Of a stretch of 64,000 bases of DNA, positions 30,713-38,842 are shown piece by piece. The notes under the pieces were generated by a model. That model was not told the origin of the DNA, ran no database searches, and saw only the letters and a program-made list of their open reading frames with translations. The position numbers and the translations under genes were made by a program. Position 1 is the first letter of the stretch; every line of letters starts with the position of its first letter. The stretch comes from Aureimonas sp. AU12 (GTDB lineage: Bacteria > Pseudomonadota > Alphaproteobacteria > Rhizobiales > Rhizobiaceae). The stretch lies in contig NZ_BBWH01000004.1 in NCBI RefSeq assembly GCF_001463705.1, forward strand, positions 1 through 64,000, given 5' to 3'.

Positions 30713-32938
30713 TCAGGACGGGGTTGCGGTACGCTCGGTGAGCGCGGGTGCGGAGAGATGGGTGGTCAGGACATCCTGCTGCGGCAGGACCGGCGCCGGA
30801 TCACGATCGAAGACGAGGTGGCGGAAGGCGCGAAGCGGGTAGATCAGCGCCCAGGTGACGAGCGCGGCGTTGGCCGCGATCAGACCACGCCGGCGCTGGC
30901 GACCATTCCGCTTGGCCCGCACCGGATCCATGTCCGACATCATCAGCTCGGCGATGAGCCGGTACTGACCGGCATTGGCCTCGTAGTGCAGCCCGAGCAT
31001 CGTCGCATCGCCCTCGGTGCCGATCGAGCGGATGCTGACGGGCAGCATGCCGAGCACCTCGCCCGTCTTGGTGGAGACTTTCAGCTCCGCCGCCGCCTGG
31101 GCGGCGAGCGCCGGCAGCACGCCATGTGGCGAGACCTTGGCGCCGCCCATCGAGATGTCCTCGACGGTGACGGGGATGACATGCCCGTCCACCACCAGTT
31201 CGGCGCGGCGGTTGGACACGAGGCGCGGCGAGAGGCGACGCTCGCGACGCTCGGTGACGACACCCAGCGCGGCGGAAGCCAGAAGCAGGTTCATCAGGTT
31301 CCAGCCGGCGACGACGAGCAGGATGCCGCCGATCTCGGGCTCCGTCTGGTAGCGGTAGATCGCATAGCCCATGGCGCCGAGCAGCACCGCGAAGATGGCG
31401 AAGTAGGGCAGCGCGATCTCCGAGAGGCGATCGTCCTGAAGCGTGTCGCCTTTCGAGGTGACGTTGAAGGTCGGCTTGCGGGGGTTTAGGATGACGCTGA
31501 TGATGGCGCGGAAGAGATAGACCGACTGGACGTACTCGTAGAGCTCCGACATCCACGGCCAGCGAACCCGGCCGTACAAGTAGTTGCGGATCAGCGACGA
31601 GATCGCGAGATAGGTCAGCGTGTAGGCGAAGAATTCTTCGGTCGAGACGTCGTAGATCTTCAGGTTGAAGAAGATGAAGAGCAGCGGCGCGACCATGAAG
31701 ATCATGCGCATCACCGGGAAGAACCAGATGAGCGAGGACGAAAGGTAGCAGATGCGCTGCGCCCCGGTAAGGCCTGGAACGAGCGCGGCGTTCTTCAGGA
31801 AGAGGATCTGCAGCATGCCGCGGCACCAGCGCGAGCGCTGACCGATGAAGCTCGAAAGCGTCTCAGGCTGCAGGCCGGTGACCATCGGCTTGTCGACATA
31901 GACGCTCTTCCAGCCGCGCGAATGGAGATCGAGAGCCGTCTCGCAGTCCTCCGTGATGGTGACGCCCGAGAAGCCGCCGACCTGCTCCAGCGCGGCGCGA
32001 CGCAGCACCGCGGCCGAGCCGCAGAAGAAGGCCGCGTTCCACTTGTCGAGCCCCTTCTGGATCGTGCCGTAGAACATCTCGTTCTCGGAGGGCATGGTCT
32101 CGAAGGTGCGCAGGTTCTTCTCGATCGGATCGGGATTGGAGAAGAAGTGCGGGGTCTGGACGAGGAAGACCTTCGGATCGCGCCGGAAGTATCCGACGGT
32201 CTCGCGCAGGAACTCGCGGGCCGGAGCGTGGTCGGCATCAAAGACGACGACGAGCTCGCCGTTCGAGGCCGCAAGGCCTGCGTTGAGGTTGCCGGCCTTC
32301 GCATGTGTGTTGCGGGCGCGGGTGACGTAGGTGACGCCGAGATCGGCCGAGAGGCGCTGGAGTTCCTCGTGGCGGGCCAGTGCGGCGGCGGCCGCCTTCG
32401 CATCGCGCGACAGGCGCTTCTGCTCGGTGCCGCCGTCGTCGAGCAGGAAGACGCGCAACTTGTCGGCGGGGTAGTCCATTACCTTCGCCGACGACAGGGT
32501 CAGCGCCAGAATGTCGGACGCTTCATTATACGACGGCACGAACACGTCGACGCGCGGCAGATCGGCGTCTTCGAGCTGCGGGGCCTGCCCTCGCGACAGC
32601 GGGTCGGAGACGACGAAGAGGTTCATCGCCAGCAGGACGATGTAGTACATCTCGGCGAGATAGAGGATGACGGCCGGGATGAAGTTGGCCAGATCGTCCG
32701 GCGAAGGCAGCGTCGCGGTGGTGCGCCAGTAGGCATAGCGCAGCACGACGGTGGTGGAGATCGCCAAGAAGACGAAGCGCCAGGGCCCCTGCAGCCGCAG
32801 CAGATAGATCACGGCAGCCAGTGCGATCGCGGTCGAGGCCACGAAGAGCTGCGCGTCGACGCTCACCGGCTGACTGATCAGGAAAAGTCCCGCGATCGCA
32901 GTCAGCAGCCAGAGAACGCCCATTGCGGTGATGCGCAT
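30713..32938 (-). CDS. bcsA: Cellulose synthase catalytic subunit with PilZ domain
   Basis: Inner-membrane processive glycosyltransferase (GT2) making beta-1,4-glucan from UDP-glucose. The 741-residue protein shows the DDG motif near residue 168, DAD at 234-236, TED at 329-331 and QRSRW at 367-371, all intact. Transmembrane helices flank the catalytic domain. The C-terminal part has a PilZ domain with the arginine-rich ERRERR stretch and DISMGGAKV, so it should be activated by cyclic di-GMP. It leads the minus-strand operon bcsA-bcsB-bcsZ-TPR; its promoter lies in the AT-richer gap upstream. Confidence 0.96.
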   Translation of the reverse strand: MRITAMGVLWLLTAIAGLFLISQPVSVDAQLFVASTAIALAAVIYLLRLQGPWRFVFLAISTTVVLRYAYWRTTATLPSPDDLANFIPAVILYLAEMYYIVLLAMNLFVVSDPLSRGQAPQLEDADLPRVDVFVPSYNEASDILALTLSSAKVMDYPADKLRVFLLDDGGTEQKRLSRDAKAAAAALARHEELQRLSADLGVTYVTRARNTHAKAGNLNAGLAASNGELVVVFDADHAPAREFLRETVGYFRRDPKVFLVQTPHFFSNPDPIEKNLRTFETMPSENEMFYGTIQKGLDKWNAAFFCGSAAVLRRAALEQVGGFSGVTITEDCETALDLHSRGWKSVYVDKPMVTGLQPETLSSFIGQRSRWCRGMLQILFLKNAALVPGLTGAQRICYLSSSLIWFFPVMRMIFMVAPLLFIFFNLKIYDVSTEEFFAYTLTYLAISSLIRNYLYGRVRWPWMSELYEYVQSVYLFRAIISVILNPRKPTFNVTSKGDTLQDDRLSEIALPYFAIFAVLLGAMGYAIYRYQTEPEIGGILLVVAGWNLMNLLLASAALGVVTERRERRLSPRLVSNRRAELVVDGHVIPVTVEDISMGGAKVSPHGVLPALAAQAAAELKVSTKTGEVLGMLPVSIRSIGTEGDATMLGLHYEANAGQYRLIAELMMSDMDPVRAKRNGRQRRRGLIAANAALVTWALIYPLRAFRHLVFDRDPAPVLPQQDVLTTHLSAPALTERTATPS

Positions 32939-34257
32939 GGGATGACTCCATCTCGGTTAGAAACACACACACGGAAGCCACGCCCCGACCGACGGAGCGG
33001 TTCGGGGAGGACAGCCTGGACAGGGCGGCACGTGACGTTGGGTAAACCTACCCGACGTGAGGTTGTGTCACAAGCATATCGCCGTCCACATCGTTAACCG
33101 CCTGCGTATCGAGACGGCTCGTGACCTTCGGCACAGTCCGCCTGAATCAAGCCAAAATGAGAAATTCTTACTAGCGCAATTTTAATCAATATTGATGGAT
33201 TTGTGTCGGGGCGAACACGTCGGTCGGCTGTCAGATCGCGTCATTGTTCGGGCGCTCAAGGCTTCCGTCGACGCCGATCACGGCCCCGGCATCGCCAATC
33301 TCGAGACAATTGAAGATCAAAGGCCATGCTGGATTGAGGCGATCCTGTGGCAACGCAACACGAGGCGCGATGCGTTTTCGGCCCCAAAACCGCATCTAGG
33401 ACCAGAATATGCGTCATCGTGTCGCACTTTCCGGCTGGAACTTTCGCTCTTGAGCCTTGAAATCAAACTTGCCGATCAGATCTGGCCAACTTGGGCTTCG
33501 CCTCTGCACACAAACTCAGGTCCCGTGCCCAAGCGAGCCTCCTGCCGCAAGCCAGAGGGGACAGTCGGCGAACTATTTGAGGCTTGACTGACGAATTGGA
33601 CCAGCGAACGGTGGATTGAACAGGGCTTCAATCTCCGCCCAACCAAGGCAGAACGCGATCACACGGGTCTCGTTGACGAAAACCGTCGGAAACTCAGCTT
33701 GTAGCCATCGTTAACATGAACGCACGTGAGATTTGCATCACTCAGTAAATTTTCACATTATGACGGCCTGAGAATCTCAGATCGACATCTGAATTACCAC
33801 AATATTTTTCGGATACTGATCGATGAACCGTGATTGAGTGCAGTCCTCTTTATTCGGCTGTCAATTTCTAATCACGCCATCCTCTTTCTCGCCTCATCAG
33901 AAAATGATTTCCGCCGCCTTTTTGATGAGAGAGCACCGTCTACGCCCGATTCTGATTGCTATGAATTCGTATCGTGAACCTGCAAAATTTGCCTCGGCGG
34001 CCTACGCAGCTTCCGCAGCCCTTCATGACACACTTTTATAGGTGATATTTACAATTTTCCTCCCGGACTATCAGTCCAAGCTCATATTCAACCCTTCCTA
34101 TGATTTTTATTTATTCAATATTATTAAATGGTGATGTATAGCGCAGCCGACCGGCGCCCAGCGAGCGCTCGTTACGCAAATTAACGCTTCGAACGCCACA
34201 TCTCTTTATTCTCCGCGGTTATGATCCTACTGTTGGCGACGACACGTGGAATCCGAG
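32939..34257. other. 1.3-kb AT-richer stretch without supported gene
   Basis: Between the divergent bcsA and GGDEF-EAL genes. From about 33060 the base composition falls well below the neighbours, with runs such as ATTTTTATTTATTCAATATT near 34100. A plus-strand frame at 33192-33587 has no signature or ribosome site. A CTGAGA-A-TCTCAG inverted repeat lies at 33768-33780. It should hold the promoters of both flanking genes; it may also be decayed or foreign DNA. Confidence 0.5.
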
Positions 34258-36603
34258 ATGCTGAAGACCGACAGGGCCCTCTTGGCCGGCAACGCGCGAT
34301 CCGAAACTCGCCGCGAGATCGTCGAGAAGGTCTGGCTGGATCAGGCCGACCTCGCGCTTCGGCTGGCGCCGCTCGCGATCCTGACCGGCCTGACGGTGTC
34401 CAACATCGTCTGCTACTATTTCTGGGGCGCGGCGCCGCTCGCCTACGTTCTGGGGCTGCAGGCGGTGATCATCGCACTGGGCTGCGTCGCGTTCCAGGGC
34501 TGCGCATCGTGGCGGCGGGGACGCCTGGTCACGCCGAACCGGACGATCGGCCTCGTGCGCTACCGGCTGATCGGCGTCGCCGCGCTGGCCGGCATCGCCC
34601 TGGCATCGATCCCGGTCATGCTCTTCAGTGGCGCCGACGCCGACGGGCGTCTGCTCATCGCAGCCACCTGCGCGGGCCTCATCGCGACGGGCATCTGCAT
34701 AGGCTTCGTTCCCGCTGCCGGCATCGCCTATTCCGGCAGCATCATCGTCGGGTCCTTCGCCGCGCTCGCAATGACCGGCCAGCCCTTCTACATCACCATC
34801 GCGATCCTGCTGGCGATCTACACCCTCTTCATCTTCACGACGATCATCCAGATCAGCCGGCTGGTCAGCCTTCGCGCCATCGTCCAGCACGACCTCGACC
34901 GGCAACGCGAGGTCAGCAGCCTGCTCCTCAACGACTTCGAACAGAACTCCAGCGACTGGCTTTGGGAGACCGATGCCGACGGTCGCGTCCAGGCGCCTTC
35001 GAGCCGGTTCGCCGAAGTTCTGCAGACCGATCGCAAGACCCTGTCGTCGTCGTGGTTCGAGGCGCTACTGACGCCCGACATCATGCTCCCGAGCGAACCG
35101 CTGCAGACTCTTCTGGGCGCGATCAGCGAGCGTCGGCCGTTCCAACGCCTCGTGGTTCCCGTCCGGATCGGCGCGGAGCGACGCTGGTGGGCTCTCACCG
35201 GCAAGCCCATCCTCGACCGGGAGAAGCGCTTCATCGGCTTTCGCGGCATCGGCTCGGACGTGACGCTGCAGAACGAATATCTGGCCGAACTCGACCATCT
35301 CGCCAATCACGACACTCTGACGACCCTGCCCAACCGCCGCCGGTTCGAGGAGATCGTCGCGGAGGCGCGGCGCGCTCTTCTCGCGCAGCCGAGCGCGGGG
35401 GGCTACGCGGTGCTCTGCCTCGATCTCGACCGCTTCAAGCAGGTCAACGACACGTTCGGCCATGCGGTCGGCGACGATCTGCTGCGGGAAATCGGAACAC
35501 GGCTCCAGGCCTTCGTCGGCCCCGACCTCATCGTCTCGCGCTTTGCCGGCGACGAGTTCGCGGTGCTCCACACGACGTCGGACGGGGCGTCGAACTCGGC
35601 GCTGGCGGAGCACATCGTCGACAGTCTGCGGCGGCCCTTCGTCTTCGACGGGCTCTATCTCGACGTCGGCGTGAGCATCGGCATTGCCATCGCAACCAAC
35701 GAGGCATCGTCGGACGGGATCCTGCGGAAGGCGGACGCCGCGCTCTATCGGATGAAGGGCGACGGCGGTGGCGGCTATCGCTTCTACGTGCCGGCGATGG
35801 ACGAGCACAAGGAAGAGCGTGCGACCCTGATGGGCGCACTGCGCGGCGCGCTCGAGCGCGGCGAATTCACGCTGAACTACCAGCCGCTCGTCTCGTCGGT
35901 GGACGGAGAACTCTGCGGCTTCGAGGCGCTCATGCGCTGGCAGCATCCTGTGCACGGGCAGGTGCCGCCCTCGGAGTTCATCGCTCTGGCGGAAGAGACA
36001 GGCACCATTCTGGCGCTTGGCGAGTGGGGTCTACGCACCGCCTGCCGCTTCGCCGCGACCTGGCCCGACCCCAGCCTATCGATCGCCGTCAACGTCTCGA
36101 CCGTCCAGATCCGGCACTCCGACCTCGTCGGCGTCGTCTCGCGCGCGCTCTCCGATTTCGGCCTGCATCCGTCTCGGCTGGAACTCGAGATCACCGAGAC
36201 GGCGTTCCTTGCCACGACGAGCGAGGCGACGGCGGTCCTCGAAAACCTTCGCCGGCTCGGCGTGCGGCTGGCGCTGGACGACTTCGGAACGGGCTATTCC
36301 AGCTTGAGCTACCTGAAGAAGTTTCCGGTCGACAAGATCAAGATCGACCGCAGCTTCATCATCGACCTGCCGGATGCCGAGAGCGACATCAGCATCGTCA
36401 AGACCATCGTCGACCTCGGCCGCACGCTCAACATGACGACGATCGCCGAGGGGGTGGAAACGATCGAGCAGCGCGACTGTCTTCGCCAACTCGGGTGCCC
36501 GCAACTGCAGGGCTACCTGTTCGGCAAGCCCGAATCCGAGGCGGTCACGCTGGAGGTGATCGCCCGCAAATCCAAGCGGTTCGAGCCGCGCGTGGTGGCC
36601 TGA
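34258..36603 (+). CDS. Membrane PAS-GGDEF-EAL cyclic-di-GMP protein
   Basis: About 780 residues. Roughly six transmembrane segments (to residue 205) form an N-terminal sensor; a PAS-like region follows (about 230-345), then GGDEF (about 350-515) and EAL (about 530-775). The diguanylate cyclase motif reads AGDEF, a variant seen in active enzymes; no RxxD inhibitory site is in place before it. The EAL domain keeps FEALMRW, NVS, ELEITE, DDFGTGYSS, KIKID and AEGVE, so phosphodiesterase activity is expected. It diverges from bcsA, whose PilZ domain is a natural target. The ATG at 34258 has GGAA upstream; a GTG four codons earlier is open. Confidence 0.92.
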   Translation: MLKTDRALLAGNARSETRREIVEKVWLDQADLALRLAPLAILTGLTVSNIVCYYFWGAAPLAYVLGLQAVIIALGCVAFQGCASWRRGRLVTPNRTIGLVRYRLIGVAALAGIALASIPVMLFSGADADGRLLIAATCAGLIATGICIGFVPAAGIAYSGSIIVGSFAALAMTGQPFYITIAILLAIYTLFIFTTIIQISRLVSLRAIVQHDLDRQREVSSLLLNDFEQNSSDWLWETDADGRVQAPSSRFAEVLQTDRKTLSSSWFEALLTPDIMLPSEPLQTLLGAISERRPFQRLVVPVRIGAERRWWALTGKPILDREKRFIGFRGIGSDVTLQNEYLAELDHLANHDTLTTLPNRRRFEEIVAEARRALLAQPSAGGYAVLCLDLDRFKQVNDTFGHAVGDDLLREIGTRLQAFVGPDLIVSRFAGDEFAVLHTTSDGASNSALAEHIVDSLRRPFVFDGLYLDVGVSIGIAIATNEASSDGILRKADAALYRMKGDGGGGYRFYVPAMDEHKEERATLMGALRGALERGEFTLNYQPLVSSVDGELCGFEALMRWQHPVHGQVPPSEFIALAEETGTILALGEWGLRTACRFAATWPDPSLSIAVNVSTVQIRHSDLVGVVSRALSDFGLHPSRLELEITETAFLATTSEATAVLENLRRLGVRLALDDFGTGYSSLSYLKKFPVDKIKIDRSFIIDLPDAESDISIVKTIVDLGRTLNMTTIAEGVETIEQRDCLRQLGCPQLQGYLFGKPESEAVTLEVIARKSKRFEPRVVA

Positions 36604-36627: not shown

Positions 36628-38532
36628 TCAGCTCGCCTTGCGGACCTCGTCGGGAACCGGCACCGCCACGTCCTGCGGACGGCTCGATGGCCAGAACGGC
36701 AGGAACCCACGGATGATGTCGGCAGGAATGTCGAGCGGCTTGAAGCTCTCCCGGTCGACGAACATCAGATCCTGCTCGCCCCGACCGAGCAGGCCATGGC
36801 GTTCGCTGACGATCTCATGCCCGAGCGTGACGAACTTTCGATTGTGGCTGGCGATCCGGATGCGGATCGTCGCAGGCTCGAACTCCGCGATCTCCCGCCG
36901 GAAGTCGTGCTGGAACGACTTCGTCAGGACATAGTAGCGCGTGGTCTCCAGCTCGAACGCAGGCATGCAGGCGTTGAAGAACAGCTCGCGCGCCTTGCCG
37001 ACCCATCGCACATAGTTGGCGAAATAGACGTTTCCGACCGAGTTGGTGTCGTCGTAGGTCGGCGTGATCTGCATGACGAACCACTGTCCGTCGAAGCCGT
37101 GGGCAGGCCCGCCATTGCTGTTGGCCGTCGTGATGACGGATGCGGGTCGGGCGAGCACGGCGTTCGACGGCGATGCCGCGATCGGATGCGGGGTCGGGCC
37201 ATCGCGCACAGTTGCGAGACCGGCCGGCGCCTGCGAACGCCCACCGACGATCGCCTGCAGCGGGCGGATCGTGCCGACGAGCGCGATTAAGGTCGAGACG
37301 GGAACGAGAAGCGGGAGATCGCCCCGGTAGCCGACGAAGAACACGAGGGCGGCCGCCAGTCCCCAGAGATAGCAGGTTAGCGCGTCGAACCGCGTCGGCC
37401 GCCCGAGGCACTCGGCGAAGAGGCATACCGTTACTCCGACGAGAAGCGTCGCGTAGGGCATCATGTAGGCGGTCTGCGAAAGGCCGAACGCGCTCATCAC
37501 CCCGGTCGCGGCGACGGCGACAGCGAGCAACCAGAGCGGCGAGGTCGCGGCCGCCACGGGAACGAAGGCTAGCGCCGGGTGCATGCTGCCGGACAACAGC
37601 GAGGAGAGATACCAGCGCGTGGCGCAATAGAAGCTGTCGATCGTCGTCACCGCGGCGATCGCCACCCAGACCACGAACGCGACCATGCCGATGCCGAACC
37701 CTTCGGACGCGAAGCGAGCGGCCACCGAAGCCTGCGCGCCGATCGCCCCGTCCGTCCCAACCTGGATGAACGCCCCCGCCGATCGCGCCAGCACCGCGTT
37801 CGCGATCAGGAAGCCGAGAAAGATAACGCCGCCGCCGACATAGGCGATGGCCGGCGACGCCCCGCTCCGGCGGATCTCGATCGCCCGCTGCCAATGCTGG
37901 AGATCACCCCAGGGACCGAGCGCAAAGCCGACGAGGGTCGGTAGGAGGAAGGTCCAGACCGACAGGGTCGCGGGCGGTTCGATCGCCACGGGCGAAGCGC
38001 CGCCTTCGGGCATGAAGCCCCAGGCGACGGCGATCGCAGCGAGGGCCAGCGCCAGATAACCGATATGCAGGAACCGCAATCGGCGGAGCGTGCTCGTGTG
38101 CCCCACGGCGCAGCCGAAGACGACCATGAGCGCGGTCAGAGCGAGCCCCGTGCTGGCGCTCTCGCCGGGCAGCAGAAGAGGCCAGACATAGGCGCCGATG
38201 GAGAAGAGGGTGATCGCAACGGCCCCGATCTGGCAGAGCAGGAAGATCGAGACGAAGCGCGGGCCGATCCGGCCGAACACCGTTTCGGGATCGCGGCGGG
38301 CCGATCCGAGGACGCAGCCGAAAAGGGCCAGGCCGATCGCGTTCGCGAGGGCGAAGACCCAGAAGCCGGTCCAACCCTGGATCCAGACGATGTGCATCGA
38401 GTAGAAGAACCCGAGCCCCCACATCCAGGACAGCGAAATGGTCGGTGCCCAGCTCAACGAGCGCAGGAATCGAGTACGCATCATGCTCAGGCCAGCCTCG
38501 AAATTCGTCTCGGACGGCCCAGCGAAATACAT
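36628..38532 (-). CDS. Fusion of transporter-like membrane protein and hotdog thioesterase
   Basis: Residues 1 to about 440 (of 634) form roughly a dozen hydrophobic segments, with a GPWGDLQHWQRA loop recalling sodium-symporter or APC-type (LeuT-fold) proteins. A polar Ala/Pro/Ser linker follows, then a hotdog domain (about 485-600) with ITPTYDDTNSVGNVYFANYV and RWVGKARELFF. That opening resembles acyl-CoA thioesterases and, more closely, the hotdog thioesterases of enediyne polyketide pathways. The linker and frame are continuous, so the fusion is real in this sequence. Substrate and transport ability are unknown. Its start could instead be the ATG pair at 38484/38481, preceded by GAGG. Convergent with the GGDEF-EAL gene, 24 nt apart. 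Confidence 0.82.
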   Translation of the reverse strand: MYFAGPSETNFEAGLSMMRTRFLRSLSWAPTISLSWMWGLGFFYSMHIVWIQGWTGFWVFALANAIGLALFGCVLGSARRDPETVFGRIGPRFVSIFLLCQIGAVAITLFSIGAYVWPLLLPGESASTGLALTALMVVFGCAVGHTSTLRRLRFLHIGYLALALAAIAVAWGFMPEGGASPVAIEPPATLSVWTFLLPTLVGFALGPWGDLQHWQRAIEIRRSGASPAIAYVGGGVIFLGFLIANAVLARSAGAFIQVGTDGAIGAQASVAARFASEGFGIGMVAFVVWVAIAAVTTIDSFYCATRWYLSSLLSGSMHPALAFVPVAAATSPLWLLAVAVAATGVMSAFGLSQTAYMMPYATLLVGVTVCLFAECLGRPTRFDALTCYLWGLAAALVFFVGYRGDLPLLVPVSTLIALVGTIRPLQAIVGGRSQAPAGLATVRDGPTPHPIAASPSNAVLARPASVITTANSNGGPAHGFDGQWFVMQITPTYDDTNSVGNVYFANYVRWVGKARELFFNACMPAFELETTRYYVLTKSFQHDFRREIAEFEPATIRIRIASHNRKFVTLGHEIVSERHGLLGRGEQDLMFVDRESFKPLDIPADIIRGFLPFWPSSRPQDVAVPVPDEVRKAS

Positions 38533-38842
38533 CAAATTTTAACGATCGTCGCGGAGCGTGTCCTTTACACGCGATAAAAGCTGTGGAGGCTTTTGCGAGC
38601 ATTGCGTCTTTCGCGAACGGTGATCGCCGGGCCGTACCGGTACGCTTGTCGGAGCGAGGACATGCCAATGGCCGCGGACCCATTCAGGCAACGCAAATGC
38701 GAGGTCGCTGAAGGCACCCGAGCTGTCCAGCGCGTCGCCCGCTGCCGTTCGCCCGCCCTCCTATCCGGTCAATTGTTCCCCCCGATGCGCTTCATTGGGC
38801 AAAGCGCATCGTTCACCGGCTCGGCGCAGCCGGCCATGTCCT
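38533..38842. other. Intergenic stretch with a hairpin
   Basis: No gene is supported. A 9-bp perfect hairpin, GATGCGCTT (38784-38792) with AAGCGCATC (38802-38810), lies 33 nt past the flavin reductase stop and may terminate that operon, though no T tract follows. A GTACCGGTAC palindrome is at 38634-38643. The promoter of the fusion gene must also be here. Confidence 0.45.

What the first reader, a model, noticed from the sequence alone, without database searches (positions are those of the whole stretch)
36628..38532. Transporter-like membrane domain fused to an enediyne-type hotdog thioesterase
One continuous frame joins about a dozen hydrophobic segments (with a LeuT-fold-like GPWGDLQHWQRA loop) to a complete hotdog domain. 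The hotdog opening DDTNSVGNVYFANYVRWVG is closer in my memory to enediyne-pathway thioesterases than to YbgC. I do not know this pairing as a described system. It could couple uptake or flipping of an acyl compound to thioester hydrolysis, or anchor a thioesterase near a membrane synthase. It sits next to a GGDEF-EAL gene and the cellulose operon.
Basis: partly seen in the sequence, partly recalled or inferred. Interest (0 to 1): 0.72.

Follow-up and report, generated by a model that had tools for sequence, protein, structure and literature searches.

The report
Transporter-thioesterase fusion paired with c-di-GMP gene
A bacterial protein that welds a transporter-shaped membrane domain to a fatty-acyl-releasing enzyme is real, and in most of its known relatives it sits tail-to-tail with a gene for a cell-signalling enzyme, which suggests an undescribed lipid-signal module.

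Summary
The fusion is real. One uninterrupted frame (36628-38535, minus strand) joins a 12-helix domain with the fold of sodium/solute symporters (SSS/SLC5, LeuT fold) to a hotdog thioesterase, predicted cytosolic, whose nearest solved structures are the enediyne enzymes CalE7 and SgcE10, not YbgC. I found 17 further fused genes (18 in all; 29-79% identity in the membrane part), so it is no assembly error. The asparagine and arginine aligned with CalE7's active site are invariant in 18 of 18.

In 61 related genomes its close homologue occurs in exactly the 4 that carry the fusion. Both genes share a history that disagrees with ThrS and genus membership, as if the pair moved together. The cellulose genes are not conserved neighbours. 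The three most divergent relatives lack the adjacent signalling gene; two lie in a PKS/oxoamine-synthase/capsule region.

Best reading (about 0.4): the thioesterase releases an acyl product at the membrane that the convergent c-di-GMP enzyme senses, working like RpfF/RpfR without being homologous to RpfF. Product, transport and mechanism are inferred. My searches of a limited library listed no description of the fusion.

The parts
36628..38535 (-). fused gene, 635 aa from TTG at 38535 or 617 aa from ATG at 38481
   Evidence: open frame; 17 other full-length fused genes
37246..38448 (-). 12-helix SSS/SLC5-like (LeuT fold) domain, residues 12-412 of the 617-aa form; both ends predicted cytosolic
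   Evidence: AF2 model (helix boundaries split by me); PDB matches; K+R 15 in loops placed inside, 3 outside
37882..37917 (-). G-P-W-x-D-x-Q-[HQ]-W-[QR]-R motif at the broken sixth helix (residues 189-200)
   Evidence: pattern kept in 18 of 18; helix break in model; a D-Q-Q-H-W-Q-R stretch also in an ordinary SSF protein in L041
37099..37245 (-). low-confidence linker, residues 413-461
   Evidence: pLDDT below 50 at 414-459; 41-75 residues among the 18 genes, as measured
36688..37098 (-). CalE7-type hotdog thioesterase domain, residues 462-598
   Evidence: Pfam 4HBT_2; PDB sequence and fold matches
37042..37044 (-). Asn480, aligned with CalE7 Asn19, at the place of the second Asp of YbgC's DTD
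   Evidence: alignment; YbgC consensus; invariant 18 of 18
36988..36990 (-). Arg498, aligned with CalE7 Arg37 and with the residue changed in the EspE7 R35A structure
   Evidence: alignments; PDB title; invariant 18 of 18
34246..36603 (+). convergent partner gene, 785 aa, 6 TM - PAS - GGDEF - EAL; 24 bases between the two genes
   Evidence: Pfam; adjacent and convergent in 15 of 18 fused loci
34363..34860 (+). six-helix membrane domain of the partner (residues about 40-205)
   Evidence: AF2 model (mean pLDDT 73, pTM 0.47, so modest); N-terminal 237 residues at E below 1e-50 only in the 4 fusion-bearing genomes of 61
34945..35268 (+). PAS domain of the partner
   Evidence: Pfam PAS_4 E 1.8e-6; fold matches to PAS/LOV
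35302..35766 (+). GGDEF domain, motif AGDEF
   Evidence: Pfam; [AS]GDEF in 14 of 14 partners aligned
35836..36531 (+). EAL domain with phosphodiesterase motifs
   Evidence: Pfam; motif table (EAL in 13 of 14, ETL in one; DDFG and AEG in 14 of 14)

Best explanation
The locus is a two-gene membrane signalling module. The fusion holds a CalE7-type thioesterase on the cytosolic face of the inner membrane through an SSS-fold domain. The thioesterase cleaves an acyl-ACP or acyl-CoA and releases a free acid or 3-oxo acid, which may lose CO2 to a methyl ketone. The SSS domain binds or moves that product, or a small molecule that gates the enzyme. The convergent 6-TM-PAS-GGDEF-EAL protein senses the product, or touches the fusion in the membrane, and changes c-di-GMP. 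It works like RpfF/RpfR (acyl-ACP thioesterase signal synthase convergent with a PAS-GGDEF-EAL receptor) with an unrelated synthase. Shown here: the fusion, the sequence and predicted-fold relationships, invariant active-site residues, the conserved convergent pair and its shared history. Inferred: catalysis, the product, transport or sensing by the SSS domain, and the direction of the c-di-GMP effect.
For: Both parts in one frame in 18 of 18 genes found. Active-site Asn and Arg in 18 of 18. In the 14 other genes of the paired clade, identity to the window is 74-96% in the hotdog against 41-79% in the membrane part. Convergent GGDEF-EAL gene in 15 of 18, while bcsA, bcsB and the two genes on the other side of the fusion have no tblastn match in the 17 other regions compared. 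The own genome has 16 EAL matches, so chance adjacency is unlikely. Partner N-terminus at E below 1e-50 in 4 of 61 genomes, exactly the 4 with the fusion; the seven others that match do so at 2e-19 or weaker. The pair's history departs from the species: ThrS 88-89% to three congeners and 82-83% to Aurantimonas 22II, Fulvimarina and Jiella flava, but the fusion's membrane part and the partner are 79/77% to Aurantimonas 22II and 43-44/47% to the congeners; both trees put the window with Aurantimonas and Fulvimarina. Precedent: rpfF and rpfR are convergent, and RpfR's FI domain inhibits RpfF thioesterase (PMC6361424, passages); YbgC thioesterase activity affects motility through c-di-GMP in Shewanella (PMC5479800, abstract and discussion).
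Against: No biochemistry. The three most divergent fused genes (G155, G403, M. extorquens AM1) have no adjacent GGDEF-EAL gene, so the pairing is not universal; in G155 the nearest one seen is a 37% match about 11 kb away (L044). Two of the three sit near a PKS and an oxoamine synthase, which fits biosynthesis as well as signalling. The partner lacks an RpfR-like FI domain; the fold search with its N-terminal part brought almost only PAS/LOV hits and identified no known sensor. Linkage and shared history can reflect co-transfer alone. The correlation of the two identity matrices (r 0.97, 14 pairs) partly reflects common ancestry. ThrS is a single marker, and loss of paralogues could mimic transfer.
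Confidence: 0.4

Rival explanations
1. Transceptor: the SSS domain imports or senses an outside nutrient (an acid, amine or urea-like solute), its state gates the thioesterase, and c-di-GMP follows nutrient supply, as CbrA couples an SLC5 domain to a kinase.
For: SSS fold with CHT1 and DUR3 as best structures; [ST]-T-x-D-[SG] on helix 8 in 16 of 18 genes, A-T-x-D-S in the other two; CbrA is reported to combine transport and signalling in one chain (PMC7096432, abstract start in listing; PMC13022988, abstract).
Against: No STAC or kinase domain found. The membrane part varies most (41-79% against 74-96% for the hotdog in the clade), odd if solute recognition were the fixed function. Substrate unknown.
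Confidence: 0.22
2. Lipid or capsule biosynthesis: the fusion is a membrane-bound release or editing thioesterase for an acyl or polyketide chain that ends in a surface lipid or capsule anchor; c-di-GMP control was added in one clade.
For: In G155 and G403 the fused gene lies within 13 kb of a type I PKS (KS-AT-DH-ER-KR-ACP; a methyltransferase hit is below its cut-off; scanned in G155 only) and an oxoamine synthase, with a capsule gene (Pfam, scanned in G403) and SDRs. A related PKS + oxoamine synthase pair (39-45% / 56%) exists elsewhere in three of three Methylobacterium-type fusion genomes examined.
Against: 7 of 16 fusion genomes searched have no PKS-size KS frame, and no frame of PKS size lies in the flanks of the paired clade. 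Only two genomes carry the arrangement, and in G403 the PKS reads in two frames.
Confidence: 0.22
3. Housekeeping acyl-CoA/acyl-ACP thioesterase merely anchored by a degenerate transporter; the GGDEF-EAL gene travels with it by chance.
For: Hotdog more conserved than the membrane part; no transport shown.
Against: Membrane motifs are kept over 18 genes; the pair is kept in loci whose other neighbours differ and co-occurs in 4 of 4 against 0 of 57 genomes at E below 1e-50; the fusion is rare (5 of 397 genomes of the order, own included), unlike a housekeeping gene.
Confidence: 0.14
4. Assembly or frameshift artefact joining two genes.
For: None found.
Against: 18 fused frames without a stop, linkers of 41-75 residues.
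Confidence: 0.01

Closest known systems
RpfF/RpfR (DSF/BDSF quorum sensing; PMC6361424, passages)
   Same: An acyl-ACP thioesterase and a PAS-GGDEF-EAL protein encoded by neighbouring, convergent genes; gene pair kept across genera
   Different: RpfF is a crotonase homologue with dehydratase and thioesterase activity, here an SSS-hotdog fusion; RpfR starts with an FI domain, here the partner starts with six predicted membrane helices; signal unknown
CalE7 / SgcE10 / DynE7 / EspE7 enediyne thioesterases
   Same: Hotdog fold, T-N-x-V-G-N-V-Y opening, Asn and Arg of the active site
   Different: Those are free-standing enzymes of enediyne pathways; here the domain is the tail of a membrane protein, mostly with no PKS nearby
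SLC5/STAC sensor kinases (CbrA, CrbS) and other SSS fusions
   Same: SSS domain at the N-terminus with a cytosolic C-terminal domain
   Different: Those carry STAC, PAS and kinase domains (or GAF/PP2C, by PMC7918813, passages); here a thioesterase
DUR3 / CHT1 SSS transporters
   Same: Fold of the membrane part; model aligns over 379-393 residues
   Different: 10-15% identity; the alignment starts at CHT1 residue 47-50 (its second helix, as recalled); no Pfam SSF hit
YbgC of tol-pal; S. meliloti SMc03960
   Same: Hotdog acyl thioesterase; YbgC activity affects c-di-GMP in Shewanella; SMc03960 yields methyl ketones
   Different: DTN-x2-GNV-x-F instead of DTD-x2-GVV-x-H; membrane fusion; not the tol-pal enzyme by NCBIfam score
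rkp-1 / wcb capsule PKS regions
   Same: PKS, oxoamine synthase and capsule genes near the fused gene in G155 and G403
   Different: The paired clade lacks this neighbourhood; relation of the fusion to RkpI could not be tested

Membership tests
SSS/SLC5 transporters | LeuT fold of SSS type | tested here: met
SSS/SLC5 transporters | match to Pfam SSF (PF00474) | tested here: not met
   no SSF match for 14 members at E up to 10; the family profile does reach an SSF protein at 1.1e-15, so a divergent relative, not a Pfam-defined member
SSS/SLC5 transporters | sodium site on helices 1 and 8 | tested here: inconclusive
   [ST]-T-x-D-[SG] kept in 16 of 18; its role is recalled; ion binding not tested
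SSS/SLC5 transporters | solute transport | not testable with these tools
   needs uptake assay
CalE7-type thioesterase domain | closest sequence and fold among solved structures | tested here: met
CalE7-type thioesterase domain | active-site Asn and Arg (roles recalled; EspE7 R35A from PDB title) | tested here: met
   18 of 18; alignments
Enediyne biosynthesis | adjacent enediyne-type PKS | tested here: not met
   no PKS-size frame in the flanks of the 15 paired genes or of AM1; the PKS near G155/G403 has a KS-AT-DH-ER-KR-ACP order; 7 of 16 genomes without a PKS-size KS frame
YbgC | DTD-x2-GVV-x-H-x2-Y core | tested here: not met
   DTN-x2-GNV-x-F-x2-Y (consensus from PMC12794305 section 5); NCBIfam YbgC score 31.5 against cut-off 141.35
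RpfF/RpfR | convergent genes, receptor with PAS-GGDEF-EAL | tested here: met
   convergent GGDEF-EAL in 15 of 18; Pfam PAS-GGDEF-EAL scanned in the window's partner, the PAS region conserved in the alignments
RpfF/RpfR | crotonase-type synthase | tested here: not met
   hotdog domain
RpfF/RpfR | FI domain at receptor N-terminus | tested here: inconclusive
   six predicted membrane helices precede PAS (pTM 0.47); no FI profile was compared
SLC5/STAC sensor kinases | STAC and kinase domains | tested here: not met
   only 4HBT domains found by Pfam at E up to 1
RkpI (rkp-1 capsule region) | orthology to RkpI | not tested
   RkpI sequence not at hand; the 1997 paper is not held

The most novel reading that the evidence does not exclude
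A new class of bacterial acyl-signal system in Hyphomicrobiales: a membrane-tethered CalE7-type thioesterase-transceptor that makes, and perhaps exports or re-imports, a fatty acid or methyl ketone signal, read by a dedicated convergent 6-TM-PAS-GGDEF-EAL receptor. It would be built independently of RpfF/RpfR and passed between genera as a two-gene cassette.
Probability: 0.3. Interest if true: 0.85.

Novelty: new variant of a known kind. Interest (0 to 1): 0.62.

Why it matters
Direct links between acyl metabolism and c-di-GMP are few; RpfF/RpfR is the best understood that I know. A second, unrelated pairing in methylotrophs and Aurantimonas-type bacteria would show that the acyl-synthase plus PAS-GGDEF-EAL plan arose more than once, and would give a ready test of how acyl products set biofilm state. 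It would also be the first SSS fusion to a lipid enzyme that I know of (basis; limited library).

Tried and rejected
Cellulose link: rejected as a conserved feature; no bcsA or bcsB match by tblastn at 1e-5 in 17 other regions (flanks from about 2 to 15 kb).

Enediyne or PKS partner as a requirement: rejected, 7 of 16 genomes have no PKS-size KS frame (KS matches at E up to 1e-20; Jiella mangrovi and AM1 not among the 16). The own genome does have PKS-size frames on contig C24, on another contig than the window.

RkpI identity: suggested by the G155/G403 context, not testable; the 1997 paper is not held and the S. fredii paper only calls RkpI a capsular polysaccharide biosynthesis/export transmembrane protein (passages).

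Standalone hotdog or standalone membrane domain: none found close by; the hotdog profile at 1e-15 hits 2 of 297 genomes of the order, both fused; the membrane profile at 1e-10 reaches one ordinary SSF protein among 385 genomes of the class. These searches score only candidates of a loose first look (often 4 or 12 per genome), so distant relatives may be missed. More distant free-standing hotdogs do exist: 24 plasmid records, 22 of them Streptomyces, Sinorhizobium and Nonomuraea the others (25 records with AM1).

Phages: no match. Pfam on the membrane part: no hit near a cut-off. PDB profile search with the membrane part: two weak hits, best E 0.35, taken as chance.

Rows dropped: G385 has the contig length and protein of Jiella mangrovi (L007) and is not counted twice. 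G425's partner reads in two frames and was left out of the partner tree (14 of 15 partners used). Partners of Jiella mangrovi, M. variabile and Methylocapsa missed by my motif filter were added by coordinates. Loci L002-L004 had only 1.5 kb of flank; wider regions were fetched later.

Not used: one of three further fold searches, one genome search.

Full report
Observation. The minus-strand frame 36628-38535 is open over 635 codons; an ATG at 38481 gives 617 aa, the numbering used here. Pfam sees only the hotdog (4HBT_2, E 1.6e-14; 4HBT, 2.6e-4). NCBIfam's best hit, the YbgC/FadM subfamily, is below its cut-off (35.5 against 68.7 bits). Among solved structures the hotdog is nearest CalE7 (4.9e-13), then SgcE10 and other enediyne thioesterases, with YbgC at 0.03; a profile of 11 relatives keeps the enediyne enzymes ahead of YbgC (2.8e-14 against 9.6e-6).

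Relatives. 61 related genomes: 4 matches, own included. One scan of genome contigs: 10 loci, in Aurantimonas (2), Jiella (2), Fulvimarina, Methylobacterium (4) and Methylocapsa. 397 genomes of the order: 5 matches, own included; one is Jiella mangrovi again, so three are new: G425, G155, G403. 385 genomes of the class and 398 of the phylum at E up to 1e-10 gave no further fused gene. Plasmids: M. extorquens AM1 megaplasmid, 41.7% over 96% of the query. That makes 18 distinct genes, all fused. Identity of the other 17 to the window is 29-79% in the membrane part and 51-96% in the hotdog; linkers are 41-75 residues. T-N-S-V-G-N and the Arg are identical in 18 of 18. In the CalE7 alignment the Asn and Arg are residues 19 and 37; their catalytic role is recalled, and the EspE7 R35A title with its alignment supports the Arg.

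The partner. In 14 of 14 loci first compared (window plus 13) the only other shared gene family is the convergent GGDEF-EAL gene; every other family recurs in at most 5 loci (three of the loci had only 1.5 kb of flank). G425 makes 15. Gene ends lie between a 33-base overlap and 171 bases apart (G425 not measured). G155, G403 and AM1 lack an adjacent one; in G155 a 37% match lies about 11 kb away (L044). The window's partner has six predicted membrane helices, PAS, GGDEF and EAL; across 14 aligned partners [AS]GDEF is kept in 14, EAL in 13 (ETL in one) and DDFG in 14. Its N-terminal 237 residues, searched in the same 61 genomes, score below 1e-50 only in G000, G012, G016 and G019, the four with the fusion; seven more genomes match at 2e-19 or weaker, three of them congeners without the fusion at 8e-5 to 9e-4. 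The own genome has 16 EAL matches.

History. ThrS of the window is 88-89% identical to the three congeners with the fusion, 82-83% to Aurantimonas 22II, Fulvimarina and Jiella flava, 76% to A. endophytica and 69-77% to the Methylobacterium-type, Methylocapsa and G155/G403 genomes (16 of 18 genomes searched). The fusion's membrane part and the partner are 79% and 77% to Aurantimonas 22II but 43-44% and 47% to the congeners. Both trees group the window with Aurantimonas and Fulvimarina (fusion: 6-row clade with Jiella, 100/100; partner: 4-row clade, 100/100) and the three congeners apart (99/99 and 100/100). The simplest reading is transfer of the pair as a unit; loss of old paralogues is not excluded. 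The pairwise identities of the two proteins correlate at 0.97 over 14 pairs, 0 of 5000 permutations reaching it, which shared ancestry alone would also raise.

Divergent relatives. In G155 and G403 the fused gene is followed, 14 bases on, by an enoyl-reductase-like SDR, and lies downstream of a type I PKS and an oxoamine synthase of the BioF/SPT kind. The PKS of G155 shows KS-AT-DH-ER-KR-ACP, with a methyltransferase hit below its cut-off; that of G403 reads in two frames. A capsule gene is confirmed by Pfam in G403. Three Methylobacterium-type fusion genomes have a related PKS + oxoamine synthase pair elsewhere (39-45% and 56%). But 7 of 16 fusion genomes have no PKS-size KS frame, so there the thioesterase, if active, most likely acts on fatty-acid thioesters. 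AM1 has a LuxR and a LuxI gene 5.4-7 kb beyond the fused gene; its branch in the tree is long and its place unsure.

Mechanism. The anatomy fits RpfF/RpfR: a thioesterase that acts on acyl-ACP, convergent with PAS-GGDEF-EAL (PMC6361424, passages). YbgC's thioesterase activity affects motility through c-di-GMP in Shewanella (PMC5479800, abstract and discussion), and a Sinorhizobium YbgC-like enzyme gives methyl ketones, one of them an infochemical (PMC12794305, abstract and two sections). Both precedents use the YbgC active site, not the CalE7 one. The enediyne enzymes release and decarboxylate 3-oxo polyenes (recalled), so a 3-oxo acid or methyl ketone is a natural guess for the product here. 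What the SSS domain does is open: product movement, gating by a solute, or anchoring.

Literature. Searches aimed at the fusion or pairing listed no paper that describes it; the SSS review's passages name only kinase, GAF and PP2C fusions. The library lacks most subscription papers, so this is weak evidence of novelty.

Noticed in passing
L028:9254-15492 (S. meliloti T073 pSymA): A 1911-aa polyketide synthase (KS, AT, KR, DH by Pfam) followed directly by a free-standing 168-aa 4HBT_2 protein with the T-N-x-V-G-N-V-Y opening: an enediyne-like PKS/thioesterase pair in a Sinorhizobium.
   Followed up: partly
L042:7569-13904 and L043:1101-19811 (own genome, contig C24): A PKS of about 2110 aa and, downstream, a frame of over 6200 aa with a KS domain; neighbours look like type II thioesterases by eye, not scanned.
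   Followed up: no
L027:22296-23844 (M. extorquens AM1 megaplasmid): LuxR-type receptor and LuxI-type synthase 5.4-7 kb downstream of the AM1 fused gene.
   Followed up: no
L052, L053, L054: Three Methylobacterium-type genomes carry a PKS of about 2500 aa next to an oxoamine synthase, related to the pair near the fusion in G155/G403.
   Followed up: partly
L021:15565-16410, L022:15525-16370: An enoyl-ACP-reductase-like SDR starts 14 bases after the fused gene in both divergent relatives (Pfam scan of L021 only, L022 88% identical).
   Followed up: no
30713-32938: BcsA in the window keeps a PilZ domain (23.8 bits, cut-off 22.5), so c-di-GMP from the partner could act on cellulose in this strain.
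   Followed up: partly
L023:5019-7204 (G425): The partner gene reads in two frames in this draft contig.
   Followed up: no
L022:54-7044 (G403): The type I PKS reads in two overlapping frames.
   Followed up: no
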